64,000 nucleotides of DNA. Origin: Pandoraea aquatica. Lineage in GTDB: Bacteria; Pseudomonadota; Gammaproteobacteria; Burkholderiales; Burkholderiaceae. Position numbers and translations under genes: made by a program. The stretch is from assembly GCF_902459565.1 (NCBI RefSeq), contig NZ_CABPSN010000005.1, positions 124,001 through 188,000 on the forward strand, written 5' to 3'. The notes under the pieces are model-generated. The model saw only the letters and a program-made list of their open reading frames with translations, searched no databases and had not been told where the DNA came from. Every line of letters begins with the position of its first letter. Within the stretch, counting starts at the first letter, position 1. Below are positions 33,445 through 43,228 of the stretch, one piece after another.

Positions 33445-36400
33445 TTAGAAGCGGTACTTCGCCGAGATACCGCCGCCCAGCGCGCTCTCGCCCTGACGCA
33501 CACTGACATTGCCGCCGACGTGGACGTTGAGTCGCTTCTTCAGTTGCACATCGACACCCAGATCCGCCGTGAAGACATCGCGTCCCAGCTTCGCGCCTTT
33601 CACGCTGAACGCACGCGGTGCGCCGTACAGCGAATTCGTCAGGCTCGCCTGCGTATTGCCGAACTCATGCTCGTACGCGAGACGCAGCATCGGCGTCACC
33701 TTGCCGCCATCGAAGTTGATCACGTCACGCGAGAAGCGCACGCCCAGCACGCTGCGCGCCGACGTCTGCGATTGCGCACCGACCTTCAGTCCGTCGTTGC
33801 CGCCCGCAGTGTCGCGGTTCGTTTCGTCGAAGGCGTTCAGACGCGTGGACGCAAAGCGCAGGCCAATCGAAGGGTCGACGTTGAAGCCTGCCACATCGAA
33901 ACGCTTGCCGATCTCGCCGAATGCGCCGAACGTGTTACCGCTCGTCTTGCCCGACAGACGCGCCGACGCGTTGCGTGCCGCCACCGTGCGGTCCGTCGTC
34001 ACGCTGTGATTCGTGTACGACACGCCACCACCGACGAATACGTTGGCGTCGTTCAGATGCGAGCCGTACAGACCGACGCTCACGCTGTTGATCTTCGACT
34101 CGCCCGGCATGCCCTTCGCCTTCGAGTTCTGGTTGCCCATGCCGACCGACGCGCCCACGACCGTGCTGTTGCCGATACGCTTGTCGACCCCGATTGCGCC
34201 ATCGATGCCGCGAACGTCGAACGACAGGGCATCGCCGCGTTGTGAGGTGTTGCCACCCGAGAACGATGCCCAGCCTGCGATGCCGTGGCTGTCGGCATTC
34301 GACCCGTTAGCGGTCTTGTCGTCGAACATTGCGCCGCCCGCCAGCATGCGCGACTGCATACCGCGCTGGAATGCCGTTGTCGCGCCTTGCGCGGCGAGCG
34401 CGTTGTTCGCCAGCGACTCACCCGAGAGCAGGCTGGCCGAGCGGCGCTGTTCGTCCGAGCCCGCCGTTTGCAGCGCCATCTCTGAGAGGACTTTGCCGCC
34501 GATCCTGCCCGAGGTCAGATCGCCCACCGTGACGCCGTTGACCGATGCCAGCACCGCCTGTTCGTTCGCGCTGTAGTTGCCGTCGGTCGCCAGGTACTGC
34601 ACGACGTTCTGGCTGGTGATAACGCCCGAAGGGTCCGACGGATCGGTAGGACCAGTAGGATCGGTGGGTTTAGTCGGGTCGGTGGGGTCGGTCGTCGTGG
34701 TCGGATCGGTCGGATCCTCCGCCTTCCCGCCGACGATGCTGCCGATCGTGACCTTGCCGAGCTTGGCCGTTTTCCCAGCCGCGACACTCACTACGCCGAG
34801 CTTGTCCTGAACGTCGGCCAGCGTGATGTCATTGGCAACGGTGACGTCGATGGCGGTGTTCGTGAAGTCGCTGTCTTCCGAGACCTGAATCGCACCACTC
34901 GCGACGTCCGCCCCCACGCGCGCCACATGCGATTTGAGCTTTGCGCCCGCTTTCGACGTGTACTTGTTCACCGCCAGCTTGCTCGTGCCCAGATCGATCT
35001 GACCGGCGTTGTCGATGTGGCCCACACCGTCGACATCGGACGCCAACTTGATGGCACCTCGCTCCGTTACCGTCACGGTACCCGCGCCCAACGCCTTCGC
35101 ATGTGCCGCCGTCACGCTACCGCCTTCGACACGCAGGCTGGCAACGCCGCTCTGATCGCCACCCAGCGTCAGATTGCCGGTACCGGCCTTGACGACATCC
35201 GAGCCGGTCGCCGCCGAAGCTTGCGTGTTCGACTTGGCGGCGCGTCGCAGCGTGTCCGCCTTCGCGCCGGAAGACGCGTCCTCGCGCACGATCTGACCGT
35301 CGAAAATGTCGTCTTCGTTACGCTCGCCCAACACCAGCTTCGTGTCTCCCGTGACGATCCGGCCGGTACCGCTCAGCGAACCGATGGACAACGTCTTCTC
35401 GGCCTTGCGTCCCGGTGCCTGCGCCTCGATATCCGCGATGTTCAGCTTGCCGCCCAGCATTTCGATTCGTGCGCCGTTCGCCTGCGTATTCCCCCGCAGC
35501 TTGACGACGCCGACGTTGGCCAATCCGAGTTGTTGCAGATCCGAATCGAGCACGTCCACCTGAGCGTCCACACCATTGATCAACGTGGCCGATCCGCCCT
35601 TCGTCTTGTCCATCTGGATCCGGCCCAGGTTGACGAGTTCGGCGCGCTGAAGATCGGTGTCCTGGAACGTCGTCAGCCCGCTCGCCGTATTCACGATATC
35701 GGCGCGACCGGCCTGTGCCCCCGCCTCGAACGTCAGCGTCCCGCTGTTCTCGATGCTTGCGGCGGCGGCATTTGCCGCGTGGAGCGTGGCACTTGCCCCC
35801 TGTGCAATGTCGATATCGCTGATGCCTGCGTCGGCACCCTCGGCGAAATGCAGGCTTCCACCTTGTTTCAGGATGATCTCTGCCGTGCCCGAGCTCGTAC
35901 GCTTGCCAAACTCGATCGCGCCGCCATCAGGGGATCCCTTCTCGCTGCGTACAGCCCACAGTGTCACGTCGCCTGCATCCGACGACACGCCGACACCGTC
36001 GTCGGCAAAGTAAAGCTTGCCGCCCTTACCGACCGTGATATCGAGTCGGCCATCCCCGCCAATCTCCTGATGAACGTTCAACGTGCCACCGTCGACGCGC
36101 ACATCGTGGTTTGCAGACCTGCGTGCGTGGAGTGTGCCTATGTCGCGCACGCCGCCGGTTCCAGCAATCGCGTCCGATTCCTCTCCCGAGCGGCGCGTCA
36201 GTTCGAGGATGCTGTCCTTTCCGATCACGTCATGGGTATCGGTTACGCCATCGTCGCCCATGAAGTTGGTCAGGTTCTTGTCGCTCCACGTGAGCACGTC
36301 CTGATGCTTGGCCGCGCCGGGCGTCGTTGCATCCAACTGGCGTGTGTTCTTGAGTGCGTTCAGTTCGGCCTCGGAATCGACATCTCTCACGCGGGCGTCC

Positions 36401-36966
36401 TTCTGCATGAGCAGCTTGCTTTCGCGCTCTACCGGCCTGCGGGCCTTCACGGTGTCCTCGAGAAAGCCGGCGTGTTTCTTGATTTCCTGTTCCAGCCCGG
36501 TGAGCGCAGTCGCCATGGCGTTACGGTCCGACCCTGTCGCTGCCTGCATGGCAGTCTCGATGCTTGCTTTAAGCGCCGATAGCTCGCCTTTTTTCTTCAA
36601 TCCGTCGGCCGTCAGATATTTATTATCTATTTTTAGCGTTTCATCGAGCGTCGCACCCAACAATTCAAACAGATCTTTTATATCCGAGTGCTTTACGCCA
36701 TCAACAAGTGCAGCCGATGCCGCATCGATTTGCTCATGAATCTTCTGCGCAAATACCTCCGTCGCCCTGGCCGCACCAAGCTCCGGATCCAACGCGTCGA
36801 TTTGGTTGGACAGTACTGCTACACGAGCATCACGCTCACGCTCCCACTGCGATGCCGTTTGCGATACCGCATGGCCAGGCAGCGCCGCTGCCGTCACCAC
36901 TGCCGCAGCAGCGACACAAATCTTCGTCCGACGCAGGACATTCGACTTCGGGTGATTCTTTTGCAT
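33445..36966 (-). CDS. Autotransporter 2 (type V secreted passenger plus beta-barrel)
   Basis: This 1173-residue autotransporter has a signal peptide (to about residue 35), a charged helical start with DPELGAARATEVFAQKIHEQ, and a beta-rich passenger (GTLNVHQEIGGDGRLDITVG, GTGNLTLGGDQSG). A Thr-Asp-Pro repeat linker near residue 755-785 precedes the barrel, which runs to a terminal KYRF. The SGESLANNA segment, just before the barrel, is shared with autotransporter 1. The linker differs: Gly run in one, DPT repeats in the other. Promoter sequence upstream is AT-rich with a long dyad. The two genes are tandem paralogues; the barrels are closely similar and the passengers divergent. Confidence 0.9.
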   Translation of the reverse strand: MQKNHPKSNVLRRTKICVAAAAVVTAAALPGHAVSQTASQWERERDARVAVLSNQIDALDPELGAARATEVFAQKIHEQIDAASAALVDGVKHSDIKDLFELLGATLDETLKIDNKYLTADGLKKKGELSALKASIETAMQAATGSDRNAMATALTGLEQEIKKHAGFLEDTVKARRPVERESKLLMQKDARVRDVDSEAELNALKNTRQLDATTPGAAKHQDVLTWSDKNLTNFMGDDGVTDTHDVIGKDSILELTRRSGEESDAIAGTGGVRDIGTLHARRSANHDVRVDGGTLNVHQEIGGDGRLDITVGKGGKLYFADDGVGVSSDAGDVTLWAVRSEKGSPDGGAIEFGKRTSSGTAEIILKQGGSLHFAEGADAGISDIDIAQGASATLHAANAAAASIENSGTLTFEAGAQAGRADIVNTASGLTTFQDTDLQRAELVNLGRIQMDKTKGGSATLINGVDAQVDVLDSDLQQLGLANVGVVKLRGNTQANGARIEMLGGKLNIADIEAQAPGRKAEKTLSIGSLSGTGRIVTGDTKLVLGERNEDDIFDGQIVREDASSGAKADTLRRAAKSNTQASAATGSDVVKAGTGNLTLGGDQSGVASLRVEGGSVTAAHAKALGAGTVTVTERGAIKLASDVDGVGHIDNAGQIDLGTSKLAVNKYTSKAGAKLKSHVARVGADVASGAIQVSEDSDFTNTAIDVTVANDITLADVQDKLGVVSVAAGKTAKLGKVTIGSIVGGKAEDPTDPTTTTDPTDPTKPTDPTGPTDPSDPSGVITSQNVVQYLATDGNYSANEQAVLASVNGVTVGDLTSGRIGGKVLSEMALQTAGSDEQRRSASLLSGESLANNALAAQGATTAFQRGMQSRMLAGGAMFDDKTANGSNADSHGIAGWASFSGGNTSQRGDALSFDVRGIDGAIGVDKRIGNSTVVGASVGMGNQNSKAKGMPGESKINSVSVGLYGSHLNDANVFVGGGVSYTNHSVTTDRTVAARNASARLSGKTSGNTFGAFGEIGKRFDVAGFNVDPSIGLRFASTRLNAFDETNRDTAGGNDGLKVGAQSQTSARSVLGVRFSRDVINFDGGKVTPMLRLAYEHEFGNTQASLTNSLYGAPRAFSVKGAKLGRDVFTADLGVDVQLKKRLNVHVGGNVSVRQGESALGGGISAKYRF
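34630..34717 (-). repeat. Repetitive linker (DPT/GPT/KPT) in autotransporter 2
   Basis: This in-gene tract encodes repeated Asp-Pro-Thr and related tripeptides (DPTDPTTTTDPTDPTKP then TDPTGPTDPSDPSG). The degenerate 9-bp repeats could change length by slippage without breaking the frame. Confidence 0.75.
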
Positions 36967-37351
36967 TCGATAAATCTCTTTTTCAATTCACATTAAATAG
37001 CGAGTTGATTCGCTACCGCCACAACAGCGACACACCTGCCACCATCAAGGCTGTGAATTCTAGAGACGAACTATCGAAATCCTATCAGTCCGAATAATTT
37101 TTAGTACTTACCCCATAATTCAATCAGAATTTTCATTTGGGATCATTCTTATAATATTCATTTAAATAATTTCCGAATCATCCCAAAATAATAGTTATAA
37201 CACTTCTTATTTCCTTAAAAGCGTTGACGCGTGCAGCGCGCGCACAACGGTGTGACGGCGCCTTTCAGTCGCATCCCATGAGTGAATTTCGTGTAGCTCC
37301 ACGTCGCAGGAGCCCGTCAGAAGCGTATGGGGCCACTTCTCAGAGAACCAT
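36967..37351. other. AT-rich upstream region of autotransporter 2
   Basis: This 385-bp stretch is the most AT-rich in the window (37080-37210). It holds no gene. A 13-bp inverted repeat (37136-37148 and 37175-37187, one mismatch) encloses a TATAAT-like sequence and suggests an operator. Confidence 0.65.
37136..37187. promoter_or_regulatory. 13-bp inverted repeat around AT-rich core
   Basis: TTTGGGATCATTC at 37136-37148 is mirrored by GAATCATCCCAAA at 37175-37187 with one mismatch. The 26-nt centre is almost all A/T and includes TATAAT. It lies 170-220 bp upstream of autotransporter 2, so it is likely a regulatory site. Confidence 0.6.
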
Positions 37352-37390
37352 AAAAAAACCCGCCGCGCCCTTTCAGGCACGACGGGTTTT
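37352..37390 (-). terminator. Terminator of nrdR
   Basis: The stem is almost the same as the one at 33360-33396 (AAACCCG-C-CG...CGACGGGTTT), followed on the minus strand by seven T's. It lies 83 bp downstream of the nrdR stop. Confidence 0.9.
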
Positions 37391-37473
37391 TCGTCATTCA
37401 TTCGACCGGTGGTGTGTCACCCACCTAAGTCTTTCCGGCAATCATCGACGCAGGTAGCGTACGCCGCCCGAGT

Positions 37474-37956
37474 TCAGGCCACCGGCTTGCGCTTGGGCTT
37501 GACGTCCGGGCTGTCGATTTCCTCAAGGACATCGCGGAATTCTGCGATGTCTTCGAAGCTTCGATAGACCGACGCGAAGCGGATGTACGCGATCTTGTCC
37601 AACCGCTTCAACTCGCGCATCACCAGTTCGCCAATGCGCTGGCTGATCACTTCACGCTCCGCACCGGCCAGCAGCTTGTACTCGATGCGCGCAATCGCGG
37701 CATCCATCGCTTCGGCGCTCACAGGGCGCTTGCGAATCGCCAACTGCATACTGGCACGCACTTTCGCACGGTCGTACTCGGCGCGGCTGCCGTCTTTCTT
37801 GACGACGACCGGCATGGCGAGTTCGACACGCTCGTAAGTCGTGAAGCGTTTGTCACACGACGGGCATTTCCGACGCCGCCGGATGGCGGCGCCGTCTTCC
37901 GCTTCACGCGAGTCGATGACCTGCGTGTCGTCGTGCCGGCAGAACGGGCAGCGCAT
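37474..37956 (-). CDS. nrdR: Transcriptional repressor NrdR
   Basis: This 160-residue repressor of ribonucleotide reductase genes has an N-terminal zinc ribbon with Cys3, Cys6, Cys31 and Cys34 (MRCPFC and KCPSCDKRF). The ATP-cone domain follows ([20 protein letters not shown], with [11 protein letters not shown]). It senses dATP/ATP and binds NrdR boxes. It lies 17 bp downstream of glyA, an arrangement frequent in Burkholderia relatives, and is followed by a terminator. Confidence 0.97.
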
Positions 37957-37973
37957 GCGTGCGACGCCGTGGC

Positions 37974-39221
37974 TTAGCCGTAGACCGGGAAACGCTTGGT
38001 CAACTCAGCCACTTGTGCGCGCACGCGGGCCAGGTTTTCAGCGTCTTCCGGGTTGTCCAGCACGTCGGCGATCAGGTTGCCGACCAGCTCGGCTTCGGCT
38101 TCCTTGAAACCACGCGTGGTCATGGCCGGCGAGCCCAGACGAACACCGCTCGTCACGAACGGCTTTTCCGGATCGTTCGGAATGGCGTTCTTGTTGACGG
38201 TGATGTGCGCTTCGCCCAGCGCGGCTTCGGCAGCCTTACCGGTGATGTTCTTGGCGCGCAGGTCGACCAGCATGACGTGCGATTCGGTACGACCCGACAC
38301 GATACGCAGACCACGCTTGACCAGCGTCTCGGCCATCACGCGTGCGTTCTTCGCGACTTGCTGTTGGTATTCCTTGAATTCCGGCGTGGCGGCTTCCTTG
38401 AACGCGACGGCCTTGCCGGCGATCACGTGCATGAGCGGGCCACCTTGAATGCCCGGGAAGATGGCCGAGTTGATCGGCTTCTCGAATTCCGCCTTCATCA
38501 GGATCACGCCGCCGCGCGGGCCGCGCAGGCTCTTGTGCGTGGTCGTGGTGACGAAGTCGGCGTGCGGCACCGGGTTCGGGTACACACCTGCGGCGATCAG
38601 ACCGGCGTAGTGCGCCATGTCGACCATGAAATAAGCGCCGACCGACTTGGCGATCTTGGCCATGCGCTCGAAATCGATCTTCAGCGCGAAGGCCGAGGCA
38701 CCTGCCACGATCATCTTCGGCTTGTGTTGTTGCGCCAGCTTTTCAGCGGCGTCGTAATCGATGTCTTCGGCTTCGTTCAGGCCGTAGCTCACGACGTTGA
38801 ACCACTTGCCCGACATGTTGACCGGCGAACCGTGCGTGAGGTGACCGCCGTGGGCGAGGCTCATGCCCATGATCGTGTCGCCCGGCTTGAGCATGGCGAA
38901 GTACACGCCCTGGTTAGCCTGCGAGCCCGAGTTCGGCTGCACGTTGGCGGCTTCTGCGCCGAACAGCGCCTTCACGCGGTCGATCGCCAGTTGTTCGACG
39001 ACGTCGACATACTCGCAACCGCCGTAATAGCGCTTGCCCGGATAACCTTCCGCATACTTGTTGGTCAGCTGCGAACCCTGCGCTTCCATCACGGCCGGGC
39101 TGGTGTAGTTTTCCGACGCGATCAGTTCGATGTGATCTTCCTGACGCTGGTTTTCTTTCTGAATCGCGGCCCAGACGTCGGGATCGACGGAGGCAACGGT
39201 AGATTTCGATTTGTCGAACAT
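37974..39221 (-). CDS. glyA: Serine hydroxymethyltransferase
   Basis: GlyA (415 aa) converts serine and tetrahydrofolate to glycine and 5,10-methylene-THF, using PLP. The PLP-binding lysine is Lys230 in [14 protein letters not shown]. Other blocks are [13 protein letters not shown] and [15 protein letters not shown]. The ATG at 39221 gives the usual start ([10 protein letters not shown]). The mRNA leader contains a ZTP riboswitch, which ties expression to one-carbon/purine status. The gene is cotranscribed with nrdR. Confidence 0.98.
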
Positions 39222-39303
39222 GGCGGTTCCGTTGAGTTGAACAGATTTTCCGGGAGGGGATGCTGCGGCGCGCCTTCCTTTGTGCTTCGGAAGACGATAG
39301 ACA

Positions 39304-39330
39304 GGGCAGCACCAACCATCACGGCTGCCC
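39304..39330 (-). promoter_or_regulatory. Alternative hairpin after ZTP aptamer
   Basis: GGGCAGC and GCTGCCC (minus strand) can pair over a 13-nt loop. The left arm is the same GGGCAGC that closes the aptamer's last stem, so the two structures exclude each other, as expected of an expression platform. There is no U-run, so it may act on translation or through a nearby transcription pause. Confidence 0.55.
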
Positions 39331-39423
39331 AGGCGAACGGCAAATAAGACCCCGGCGCTTCCCGGTGGGTTGCTCCACCTCGGGCACACAAGGGTGTGGG
39401 CCCTAATCGCCAGTCACGCGGGG
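39325..39423 (-). ncRNA. ZTP (pfl) riboswitch upstream of glyA
   Basis: On the minus strand, about 100-200 nt upstream of glyA, the sequence has the invariant pfl/ZTP elements. The 5' block reads GCGTGACTGGCG. Then come a GGTGG/CCACC stem with GGGAAGCGCCGGGG, which pairs with CCCCG at the 5' end, and the 3' block CGCCTGGGCAG. Known ZTP riboswitches sense 5-aminoimidazole-4-carboxamide ribotide (ZMP/ZTP) and often control glyA and folate genes. Assignment is by motif reading; a covariance search would settle it. Confidence 0.9.
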
Positions 39424-39458
39424 TTTGTGGCGTCGATAGTTTACGCGAGCTTGGGACG

Positions 39459-40478
39459 TTAGGCAACTGACCCGGAGACACGCACCACCACCTTGCCGAA
39501 CGCCCCACGGCGCAAGTGCGACAGCGCCTCGGCGGCATCGGCAAATTCGTAGACGGCGTCCACGACCGGCGTAATACCGTGGCGGTCGATCATCGCACCG
39601 AGCGCCTCCAGCCCCTGCCGGTGCCCCACCCCGATGCCCTGCACATGTGCCCGCTTGAGCAGCACCGGGTACACCGGGATTTGCAGGAAATCCCCGCCCA
39701 GCGTGCCAATCACCGAAACCTTGCCGTTGGGCGCGAGCGCCGCCATCGTCTCGCGCATGTCGCCGCCGGCCAGCTCCAGCACCTGCTCAACGCCCCGCCC
39801 TTCGGTCAGTCGACGGACTTCGTCCGCCCAACCTTCCCGACGTTGGACACCGTGCGTCACCCCCAGCGCCGCCGCGCGCGCCAGCTTTTCCTCGCTACCG
39901 CTCACGACGATGGCCTTGGCCCCATGCGCCAGCGCCAATTGCGCACCGAACAAGGCCACACCGCCGGTGCCAATCGACAGCACCGTCTCGCCGGGCGCGA
40001 GCTGACGGCCAGTCCCGAACAGCGCAAACCAGGCGGTGAGTCCGGCACACGTCAACGTCGACGCTGCCACGTCGTCCAGCGTGGACGGGGCACGCACCAG
40101 CGCCGCCTCGTCGAACACGGCGTACTCCCGAAGCACACCCTGCAAGGTGCCACCGAAGATCTGCAAACCAGCCGGGGCCTGTTCCCCCTCGCTCCAGCGA
40201 TCCCAGAACGTGTTGACGACGCGCTCGCCGACGCGCACGCGCGTCACGCCATCGCCCACGGCCACGACTTCCCCCGCCATGTCCGAACCGGGCACGAACG
40301 GGAACGTCACCGGCAACCCCATGCCGGTGTCGATCATGAGGGCATCGCGATAGTTGAGCGACACCGCGCTCACTTTCACGAGCACTTCACCGGGACCGGG
40401 CGTTGGCACGTCCACGGTCGCCATTGCGAGCGAAGCTTCGCCCAGCGTCGTCATTTGCCATTGCTGCATCGTTGTCAT
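39459..40478 (-). CDS. NAD(P)-dependent quinone oxidoreductase-like MDR protein
   Basis: This 339-residue medium-chain dehydrogenase/reductase has the GroES-like N-terminus (MQQWQMTTLGEASLAMATVD, VSLNYRDALMIDTG) and a Rossmann domain (VLSIGTGGVALFGAQLALAHG). It lacks the structural-zinc Cys cluster, which fits a quinone-oxidoreductase (crotonase-free NADPH) subgroup. ATG 40478 follows GAGGA. It is divergent from the LysR gene at 40599, which may regulate it. Confidence 0.85.
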   Translation of the reverse strand: MTTMQQWQMTTLGEASLAMATVDVPTPGPGEVLVKVSAVSLNYRDALMIDTGMGLPVTFPFVPGSDMAGEVVAVGDGVTRVRVGERVVNTFWDRWSEGEQAPAGLQIFGGTLQGVLREYAVFDEAALVRAPSTLDDVAASTLTCAGLTAWFALFGTGRQLAPGETVLSIGTGGVALFGAQLALAHGAKAIVVSGSEEKLARAAALGVTHGVQRREGWADEVRRLTEGRGVEQVLELAGGDMRETMAALAPNGKVSVIGTLGGDFLQIPVYPVLLKRAHVQGIGVGHRQGLEALGAMIDRHGITPVVDAVYEFADAAEALSHLRRGAFGKVVVRVSGSVA

Positions 40479-41580: not shown

Positions 41581-43020
41581 TCAACGCTGCCCCGTACACA
41601 GAAACGGCTCTTGCTGAGCGTCGACCGCCTTGGCACGCGTGGCATACATATGCGCCCAGGTTTGCGCGGCCCAGGTGCCGCCGAGGCATTCCACCAGGTG
41701 ATCGCGACGCGCAAGCAGCCGGTTCACGAGCGCCTCCGGTTCACATATGGCTGCGACGTCAGGAAACACGCCGCCCGCCGCGTCCCCGTCCTTCGCCACC
41801 TCGTAGACACTTTGCGCCCACGGCCGAATGTCAGGCGCGGAAATCCGGCCCAGCCGGTAAGCCATTTCAGCCGCCAGCGCGCGTACGCTAACCGGGTTCT
41901 TCAATGCGTCGTGCACTGACTTGTTTGACGCACCGGACGTGAGTCCTCTCAGGCGACGAACAAATGGCGCGTACTGATCGCCGTACGGAAATTGCGAGAG
42001 GTCGGTGAGCGAATTTTCGGCGAGCGCGGTGCTGAAGTCCGCCGCGTCTCGCCGGAATGTCGACGTCAGCGCAGGCAGCGAAGGCACGGCATTGCGCTGA
42101 CTGACCGCCACGTCGTAGCTCTGGTCTTTGGTCAGGCCTTGAAAGCCCAGGTGAAGGCACGCGTCGAAGTCGAGCGACATCGCATACGGCAGGTCGTTCT
42201 TGTCGCGCCAGACACCGATGTTCTCCATGAAGACGTTGCACAGATCCCAGTTGCCGAGCCAGAGTGCCGCGATGTAGTGACGTTCGAGCGCGCATTGATA
42301 GACGTCCGGCAACGCGTGACACAGTTGATGGCGCATGGCGTTGCGACGTGCCAATGCGTCTGCATACCCCTTCGCCGCCTCACCGCTCAGCGCGTGAAAC
42401 GGCACACCGCCGGACGTCACCAGTCCCGCCATCTGCCGCCTCGCCGCGCTCGCTTCGTTCCTCACCACTTGCAGCCGAGACACGTCGGGCCGGTCGGCAC
42501 CGGTTGTCCCTTCGAGAACACGCCACGCATCGTCGCTCTCCAGCCAGTCGCCGAGATCCTGATATCGGGACAGAAACGTCGTTGCCAGATAGACCCGCGC
42601 CGGGTCGTGCGTCCCGTCGAACGCTTGCGAGCACCCACGCACCAGCACGGCGGTCGGTGTCGCGAGTCCCACAGCGCCAAAGAGGCGTGACGCCAGCCAT
42701 GCCTGCGCGGCATGCCCCGCGCTCGGGCACGCTTTGATGACGTACTGAGGCATATCTGCATGCGGCGTGAGCGACATGCGTATAGCCGACCCGGTGCTGC
42801 CCATCGGCGCGGCATCGGTCACGCGCGTGGCGTTGGAGAAATCGTAAGGACCGATGTCCGGCAAGGACGCACCGCTGCCGTCGTGCCCGATGACCGCACC
42901 GAAGATGCCCAACGGACCGGCTTCCGGCAACAAGGCTGCGTGCCCGGAGGCGTCGCCTGTCAACCCGTCGTGCCGGCCGTGGTTGATGTCACTGTGAACG
43001 AGGAAAGTGTTGATCTGCAT
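41581..43020 (-). CDS. Unrecognised protein with kinase-like motifs
   Basis: I do not recognise this 479-residue protein as a named family. Its internal pattern resembles an atypical protein/lipid-kinase fold. It has a beta strand with Lys96 (QYVIKACPS), a helix after it, and a hinge (VYLATTFLSRY). A GNWDLCN loop (256-262) is like the catalytic Asp-x4-Asn of HipA/PI-kinase folds. A late MSLDFDA (Asp284) resembles a metal-binding DFG. No signal peptide or membrane segment is seen. GGGAG supports ATG 43020. It is flanked by a LysR gene and a DJ-1/PfpI gene, with no visible pathway link. It could be a signalling or effector kinase. Confidence 0.55.
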   Translation of the reverse strand: MQINTFLVHSDINHGRHDGLTGDASGHAALLPEAGPLGIFGAVIGHDGSGASLPDIGPYDFSNATRVTDAAPMGSTGSAIRMSLTPHADMPQYVIKACPSAGHAAQAWLASRLFGAVGLATPTAVLVRGCSQAFDGTHDPARVYLATTFLSRYQDLGDWLESDDAWRVLEGTTGADRPDVSRLQVVRNEASAARRQMAGLVTSGGVPFHALSGEAAKGYADALARRNAMRHQLCHALPDVYQCALERHYIAALWLGNWDLCNVFMENIGVWRDKNDLPYAMSLDFDACLHLGFQGLTKDQSYDVAVSQRNAVPSLPALTSTFRRDAADFSTALAENSLTDLSQFPYGDQYAPFVRRLRGLTSGASNKSVHDALKNPVSVRALAAEMAYRLGRISAPDIRPWAQSVYEVAKDGDAAGGVFPDVAAICEPEALVNRLLARRDHLVECLGGTWAAQTWAHMYATRAKAVDAQQEPFLCTGQR

Positions 43021-43228
43021 CGCGACGCTCCCTGGTCGTGGCAGGGGGGCCGCTACGTGTGCGGACGCCGGCCTCCCGGTTGAGACCGGCAATCTTGCTG
43101 CGGCGTCGCGCGTCCAGCTTTCGAAAATGAGGCAAGATCGGACGAATCCGCCGCGCGTCTGCGGCAAGGACCGCAGTGGCGGCGGCGTCCGGTGGCGGGT
43201 CTTACTTTACCTCCGCCCTACGTCGGCT

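What the first reader, a model, noticed from the sequence alone, without database searches (positions are those of the whole stretch)
39304..39423. ZTP riboswitch and alternative hairpin in the glyA leader
The minus-strand leader of glyA contains the ZTP/pfl aptamer blocks (GCGTGACTGGCG and CGCCTGGGCAG, plus the GGGAAGCGCCGGGG / CCCCG stem). A downstream GGGCAGC/GCTGCCC hairpin would compete with the last aptamer stem and has no U-run, so the switch may act on translation or pausing rather than termination. This would join glyA and the co-transcribed nrdR under one ZMP/ZTP signal, linking one-carbon metabolism to nucleotide-reductase control.
Basis: partly seen in the sequence, partly recalled or inferred. 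Interest (0 to 1): 0.72.

Follow-up and report, generated by a model that had tools for sequence, protein, structure and literature searches.

The report
ZTP riboswitch ahead of glyA-nrdR
A known kind of RNA sensor for folate shortage (a ZTP riboswitch) sits before the glyA gene of this Pandoraea-like bacterium, as it does in many related bacteria, and its switching part looks conserved but lacks a classic terminator.

Summary
In detail: Rfam's ZMP-ZTP model matches window 39427-39320 (-) at 61.1 bits (cut-off 39), and the GGGCAGC/GCTGCCC hairpin (X) uses the whole 3' strand of aptamer helix P3. The genome is Pandoraea-like. This riboswitch before glyA is known in these bacteria: 67 of 80 named glyA loci carry it, and a Cupriavidus glyA-lacZ fusion responds to trimethoprim (PMC10882993, passages). 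I add the switch anatomy. X reaches the 5% shuffle level in 22/24 Pandoraea, 31/40 Burkholderia-group and 28/31 Oxalobacteraceae-like distinct leaders, but 0/7 Cupriavidus and 0/8 others. X also excludes a covarying helix Y. X scores as no canonical terminator in 107 of 107 leaders, and predicted ribosome-site access does not change consistently between states. Simple translational gating is thus not supported; transcript-level attenuation, perhaps by Rho, is inferred. nrdR follows glyA by 17 nt, and on the same strand in 75 of 80 loci; joint control is plausible, untested. An ordinary member of a known class with a moderately interesting expression platform.

The parts
39438..39466 (-). likely sigma-70-type promoter: TTGCCT (39466-39461), 17-nt spacer, TAAACT (39443-39438); the -35 box overlaps the stop codon of the upstream dehydrogenase gene; start expected about 7 nt downstream, right before the aptamer
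   Evidence: TTGCCT, 15-19 nt, TA(A/C)ACT found directly 5' of the aptamer in 32 of 32 Pandoraea and 41 of 43 Burkholderia-group leaders, and in 0 of the 47 leaders of the other groups; not found by the stricter generic promoter scan; start site inferred
39320..39427 (-). ZMP/ZTP riboswitch aptamer (pfl motif), with an extra hairpin (GGGC.CACAC/GUGUG.CCC) inserted between the GACUGGCG block and P2
   Evidence: Rfam RF01750, 61.1 bits, model 1-86, 23-nt insertion
39339..39343 (-). P3 5' strand UUGCC
   Evidence: Rfam consensus structure line
39325..39329 (-). P3 3' strand GGCAG, shared with hairpin X
   Evidence: Rfam consensus structure line
39304..39330 (-). competitor hairpin X: GGGCAGC (39330-39324) with GCTGCCC (39310-39304), 13-nt loop
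   Evidence: 100% paired in 24 of 24 distinct Pandoraea leaders but almost invariant; at or below the 5% shuffle level in 81 of 95 distinct leaders of three groups, in 0 of the other 15
39250..39324 (-). alternative helix Y (anti-X): 39324-39309 with 39266-39250, excludes X
   Evidence: two pairs with changes on both sides, 94.5% of cells paired over 24 distinct Pandoraea leaders on an alignment fitted to the structure; post-aptamer region at or below the 5% level of 100 shuffles in 22 of 24
39271..39296 (-). inner hairpin I: CGTCTTCC (39296-39289) with GGAAGGCG (39278-39271), compatible with X or Y
   Evidence: three pairs with changes on both sides
39227..39232 (-). weak Shine-Dalgarno-like ACGGAA before the glyA start codon at 39221
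   Evidence: sequence; predicted accessibility without consistent change between states
37974..39221 (-). glyA, serine hydroxymethyltransferase, 415 aa
   Evidence: NCBIfam NF000586.1 672.8 bits; Pfam SHMT
37474..37956 (-). nrdR, ribonucleotide reductase repressor, 160 aa, 17 nt after glyA
   Evidence: TIGR00244 equivalog 196.1 bits; Zn_ribbon_NrdR and ATP-cone

Best explanation
A ZTP riboswitch that turns glyA, and probably the nrdR gene behind it, on when ZMP/ZTP builds up in 10-formyl-folate shortage. Transcription starts at a promoter directly before the aptamer (inferred). With ligand, P3 holds the GGCAG strand, hairpin X cannot form, and the rest of the leader folds into helix Y. Without ligand, X takes the P3 strand, breaks Y and leaves the C-rich part of the leader open. 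Shown here: the aptamer match, mutual exclusion P3/X/Y by sequence, recurrence of X in three groups and compensatory changes in Y. Inferred: ligand binding and ON direction (from the class and relatives), and that the X state stops transcription before glyA, by Rho or a non-canonical terminator, rather than blocking ribosome binding.
For: Aptamer: 306 of 398 family genomes at E 0.001, 302 over the cut-off; 30 of 32 genus genomes. X. Y. Predicted ensemble energies of the post-aptamer part are close with and without X for the window (-37.0 with X, -36.6 without; 24-leader means -35.1 and -34.6; P3, pseudoknot and ligand not included), which suits a switch tipped by ligand. No consistent change in predicted ribosome-site access. 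The leader after X is C-rich (C/G 1.67 in 24 Pandoraea leaders; C 0.30, G 0.29 in 85 nt upstream of 35 mechanical control ORFs of the window, of which 4 have C/G of at least 1.5), and its Cs are more exposed in the X state in 24 of 24. In Cupriavidus metallidurans a glyA-lacZ operon fusion rises with trimethoprim (PMC10882993, passages), so the effect appears to reach the mRNA there.
Against: No expression data for Pandoraea. The Cupriavidus leaders, the only ones of this family for which I saw data, lack X (0 of 7), so they may work differently. X shows almost no variation inside Pandoraea. The Y pair 39312-39263 is mismatched in 8 of 24 leaders, the window's included, which then use a shifted register. 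L112 favours the X state by 5.4 kcal/mol. Exposure of Cs in the X state partly follows by construction from forcing X. C-richness is a weak marker of Rho sites.
Confidence: 0.6

Rival explanations
1. Same aptamer, but X acts as a weak intrinsic terminator that ends in an interrupted pyrimidine tract (UGUCUAUCGU) instead of a U-run; ZTP prevents it by strand displacement as in described transcriptional ZTP switches.
For: Similar logic to the described displacement of the ZTP aptamer by a downstream hairpin (PMC13273304 section 34; PMC7484762 passages). Four or five U among the 8 nt after X in 24 of 24 distinct Pandoraea leaders.
Against: Terminator d-score below 0 in 107 of 107 leaders with a computed helix, best -8.4 (formula recalled); 7-bp stem with a 13-nt loop in the window.
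Confidence: 0.25
2. Translational switch: X or Y indirectly controls ribosome access to glyA.
For: No U-run; a small predicted hairpin over the ACGGAA element of the window's leader, though in both states; translational control is common in Proteobacterial riboswitches (general knowledge).
Against: Predicted openness of the -14 to -5 region: Pandoraea mean 0.48 with P3, 0.51 with X; differences above 0.1 in 2 leaders up and 4 down of 24; Burkholderia group 1 up and 1 down of 40; Oxalobacteraceae-like 6 up and 3 down of 31. The operon fusion responds in Cupriavidus, although translation-coupled decay or Rho could also cause that.
Confidence: 0.28
3. The aptamer is real but X and Y are accidental complementarities in GC-rich leader sequence, and the platform lies elsewhere.
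For: X is absent or weak in Cupriavidus (0 of 7) and in 8 other Burkholderiales leaders; in single Pandoraea leaders 0-6% of shuffles do as well.
Against: X recurs at loop lengths from 10 to 34 nt among the 81 leaders at the 5% level, in three groups; Y and I show 5 pairs with double changes, 0 of 500 column shuffles reaching that (related sequences, fitted alignment).
Confidence: 0.1

Closest known systems
ZTP (pfl) riboswitch class, RF01750
   Same: Complete aptamer match; glyA is among the genes listed for the class in 2010 (PMC2864571, passages)
   Different: 23-nt insertion in the aptamer (matches in related leaders also exceed the 86-position model); no U-run after the competing hairpin
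pfl riboswitch of Cupriavidus metallidurans glyA (PMC10882993, passages)
   Same: Same family of bacteria, same gene, single copy, trimethoprim-responsive reporter
   Different: The seven Cupriavidus leaders compared here, not that species itself, lack hairpin X
Herbaspirillum seropedicae glyA ZTP RNA Hsnc029 (PMC7011215, passages)
   Same: Annotated ZTP RNA before glyA; related Oxalobacteraceae-like leaders carry X (28 of 31)
   Different: Different sequence after X and a longer glyA-nrdR gap in the two Herbaspirillum loci seen here; mechanism not addressed in the passages seen
Transcriptional ZTP switches in which a terminator displaces the aptamer (Clostridium beijerinckii and Thermosinus: start of abstracts only; Fusobacterium ulcerans: PMC7484762 passages; class model: PMC13273304 section 34)
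   Same: A downstream hairpin competes with the aptamer; that the shared strand is the P3 3' strand there is recalled
   Different: There the hairpin is a terminator; here it does not score as one, and a second exclusive helix Y is present

Membership tests
ZTP riboswitch (RF01750) | covariance-model score above the curated gathering score over the full aptamer | tested here: met
   61.1 bits against 39, model 1-86
ZTP riboswitch (RF01750) | position in the leader of a one-carbon or purine gene, same strand | tested here: met
   glyA start at 39221, 98 nt after the aptamer
ZTP riboswitch (RF01750) | binds ZMP or ZTP | not testable with these tools
   needs in-line probing; inferred from the class
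ZTP riboswitch (RF01750) | expression platform coupled to P3 by a shared strand (recalled as typical, not strictly defining) | tested here: met
   X shares GGCAG with P3; 22 of 24 distinct Pandoraea leaders at the 5% shuffle level
intrinsic-terminator riboswitch platform | GC-rich hairpin followed by a U-run | tested here: not met
   d-score below 0 in 107 of 107 leaders (recalled formula); none on this strand in the pattern scan of 37000-39800, which allows loops only up to 8 nt
ribosome-site-sequestering riboswitch platform | ribosome-binding site open in one state and paired in the other | tested here: not met
   by structure prediction only; no consistent difference in 24 Pandoraea leaders
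Rho-dependent riboswitch platform | C-rich unpaired segment exposed in the OFF state, loss of regulation without Rho | tested here: inconclusive
   C-rich and more exposed in the X state; Rho dependence not testable here

The most novel reading that the evidence does not exclude
A ZTP ON-switch whose output is not an intrinsic terminator: P3, hairpin X and helix Y exclude each other in turn, and the ligand-free state exposes a C-rich segment for Rho, so that one folate alarm signal sets both glyA and the ribonucleotide-reductase repressor NrdR across Pandoraea and much of the Burkholderia group.
Probability: 0.25. Interest if true: 0.45.

Novelty: new member of a known kind. Interest (0 to 1): 0.25.

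Why it matters
The riboswitch itself adds one more case to a well-described class. If the platform works as inferred, it would show a ZTP switch with a non-canonical output shared by a large group of beta-proteobacteria. The conserved glyA-nrdR gene pair would let folate shortage reach deoxynucleotide synthesis directly, which a simple reporter could test.

Tried and rejected
Ribosome-site sequestration as the main output: tested by constrained folding and not supported. Canonical intrinsic termination: d-score and pattern scan negative. Whole-leader folding of the window: the pseudoknot-free minimum-energy fold does not show the aptamer helices and is not much better than shuffles (z -1.10, 28 of 200 shuffles as good), so I folded the two post-aptamer states apart instead. 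MAFFT placed the Y 3' strand of three divergent leaders wrongly, so I realigned with a covariance model; the pair counts therefore lean towards Y. A B. cenocepacia start-site study was checked by passages; its main text does not contain 'glyA'. Kim 2015 and Strobel 2019 are not held and are known to me only by recall and citation. Literature searches for this platform or for an nrdR link. The library lacks most subscription journals, so absence there is weak evidence.

Data handling. Group labels were assigned by hand: named loci by record title; the 25 unnamed loci of the same family outside the genus were all put under the Burkholderia group by kinship only. Of the 124 riboswitch loci gathered, two (L002, L004) were dropped because FolD- and PurH-like reading frames, not glyA, follow; these names are my reading of the translations. 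Twelve more leaders were dropped as duplicates, leaving 110. Its entries in the Cupriavidus lines, and so one of the 107 d-scores, rest on the wrong anchor. The start position used for L053 was set by hand because its Rfam match was misplaced.

Full report
What is there. The minus-strand leader of glyA carries a complete ZMP/ZTP (pfl) riboswitch aptamer at 39427-39320. Rfam RF01750 scores 61.1 bits against a gathering score of 39, over all 86 model positions, and is the only Rfam match above gathering in the window. No second copy was found in the genome. The aptamer contains an extra hairpin before P2, which the Rfam alignment shows as a 23-nt insertion; one further base is inserted in P2's loop.

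Whose genome. The best named GlyA match is Pandoraea anapnoica, 100% identical, and its NrdR is 100% identical too, so the window is from a Pandoraea species or a very close relative. The genome held has 5.96 Mb in 17 contigs.

How common. A riboswitch match at E 0.001 is present in 306 of 398 genomes of the family (302 over the cut-off) and in 30 of 32 of the genus. The two exceptions are a 1.2-Mb reduced genome that keeps glyA at 86% identity and an 89% complete assembly in which only a weak, 22% identical match to GlyA was found. Two of the 13 misses are cut off by contig ends just upstream of glyA (L063, L093). One counted match (L053, 40.3 bits) lies slightly off the true aptamer.

Known before. 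The class was linked to glyA in 2010 (PMC2864571, passages). In Cupriavidus metallidurans the single pfl lies before glyA and a glyA-lacZ operon fusion responds to trimethoprim but not to sulfonamide (PMC10882993, passages). Herbaspirillum has an annotated ZTP RNA before glyA (PMC7011215, passages). A 2026 study models the ZTP aptamer together with its downstream hairpin and sees the aptamer rearranged by it (PMC13273304, section 34).

Hairpin X. GGGCAGC (39330-39324) pairs with GCTGCCC (39310-39304) and takes all of the P3 3' strand. I searched every leader for the best helix overlapping that strand by three or more bases and compared it with 100 dinucleotide shuffles of the downstream sequence. 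Of 110 distinct leaders (122 in all), X was at or below the 5% level in 22 of 24 Pandoraea, 31 of 40 Burkholderia-group and 28 of 31 Oxalobacteraceae-like leaders, and in 0 of 7 Cupriavidus (one re-anchored) and 0 of 8 other leaders. Leaders in a group are related, so these are not independent trials. Inside Pandoraea X is almost invariant (only G-C to G-U at one pair in 3 leaders), which neither supports nor contradicts pairing.

Helix Y and hairpin I. With P3 formed, the leader after the aptamer is predicted to fold into a long hairpin whose 5' strand overlaps both arms of X. The region is at or below the 5% level of 100 shuffles in 22 of 24 Pandoraea and 26 of 40 Burkholderia-group leaders, but in only 6 of 31 Oxalobacteraceae-like ones. 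On a model-fitted alignment of 24 distinct Pandoraea leaders, Y has two pairs and I three pairs with changes on both sides; 12 such cells were seen against a mean of 1.8 in shuffles, 0 of 500 reaching it, and slid structures give at most 5. One Y pair is broken in 8 of 24, the window's leader included, where a shifted register is predicted. The double changes come from few lineages, mainly L112 and the L009/L010/L020 group.

Output. X does not score as a canonical terminator in any of 107 leaders with a computed helix (best d-score -8.4; the formula is recalled). Predicted access to the ribosome-binding region shows no consistent difference between states. The stretch between X and the start codon is C-rich and G-poor, and its Cs are more exposed in the X state by more than 0.05 in 24 of 24 Pandoraea, 25 of 40 Burkholderia-group and 19 of 31 Oxalobacteraceae-like leaders, partly because X is forced there. 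A riboswitch that controls Rho-dependent termination is a known principle (Hollands 2012, seen only as a citation; review passages). I therefore favour attenuation of transcription, with Rho the more likely agent, but none of this is shown.

Operon. nrdR starts 17 nt after glyA. In 75 of 80 named loci nrdR lies downstream on the same strand, at 7 to 372 nt by the measure, which counts the stop codon. Nine of these loci have no detected riboswitch (two of the nine are cut off upstream). So the gene pair also occurs where the riboswitch was not found, and nothing shows that it exists for ZTP control. No paper in the library holds both NrdR and ZTP.

Promoter. TTGCCT-17-TAAACT lies at 39466-39438, with its -35 box over the stop codon of the upstream dehydrogenase. 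TTGCCT, 15-19 nt, TA(A/C)ACT recurs directly before the aptamer in 32 of 32 Pandoraea and 41 of 43 Burkholderia-group leaders, and in 0 of 47 leaders of the other groups, where I did not count their different-looking boxes. The RNA probably starts at the aptamer. Read-through from the upstream gene is not excluded.

Verdict. The finding is a correct identification of a known riboswitch class at a known target gene.

Noticed in passing
L002 and L004 (relatives in the same family): Second ZTP riboswitches in related genomes precede a FolD-like and a PurH-like reading frame; the gene names are read from the translations, not from a family search.
   Followed up: partly
L045, L048, L050, L053, L054, L055, L058: Cupriavidus glyA leaders lack the P3-competing hairpin and have a different, conserved GGGAAGCAGGGTGCGCCCTG element right after the aptamer, so their platform seems different.
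   Followed up: partly
L139 (G010, 1.2-Mb genome placed in the same genus): A reduced genome keeps glyA (86% identity) but no ZTP riboswitch was found.
   Followed up: partly
window 33445-36966, minus strand: Large autotransporter of 1173 aa with a PTDPT-type repeat linker before the beta-barrel.
   Followed up: no
window 41581-43167, minus strand: A 528-aa reading frame with no Pfam match at E 0.001.
   Followed up: no
window 39227-39246, minus strand: A small predicted hairpin (UCUGUU/AACGGA) covers the Shine-Dalgarno-like element in both switch states of the window's leader.
   Followed up: partly
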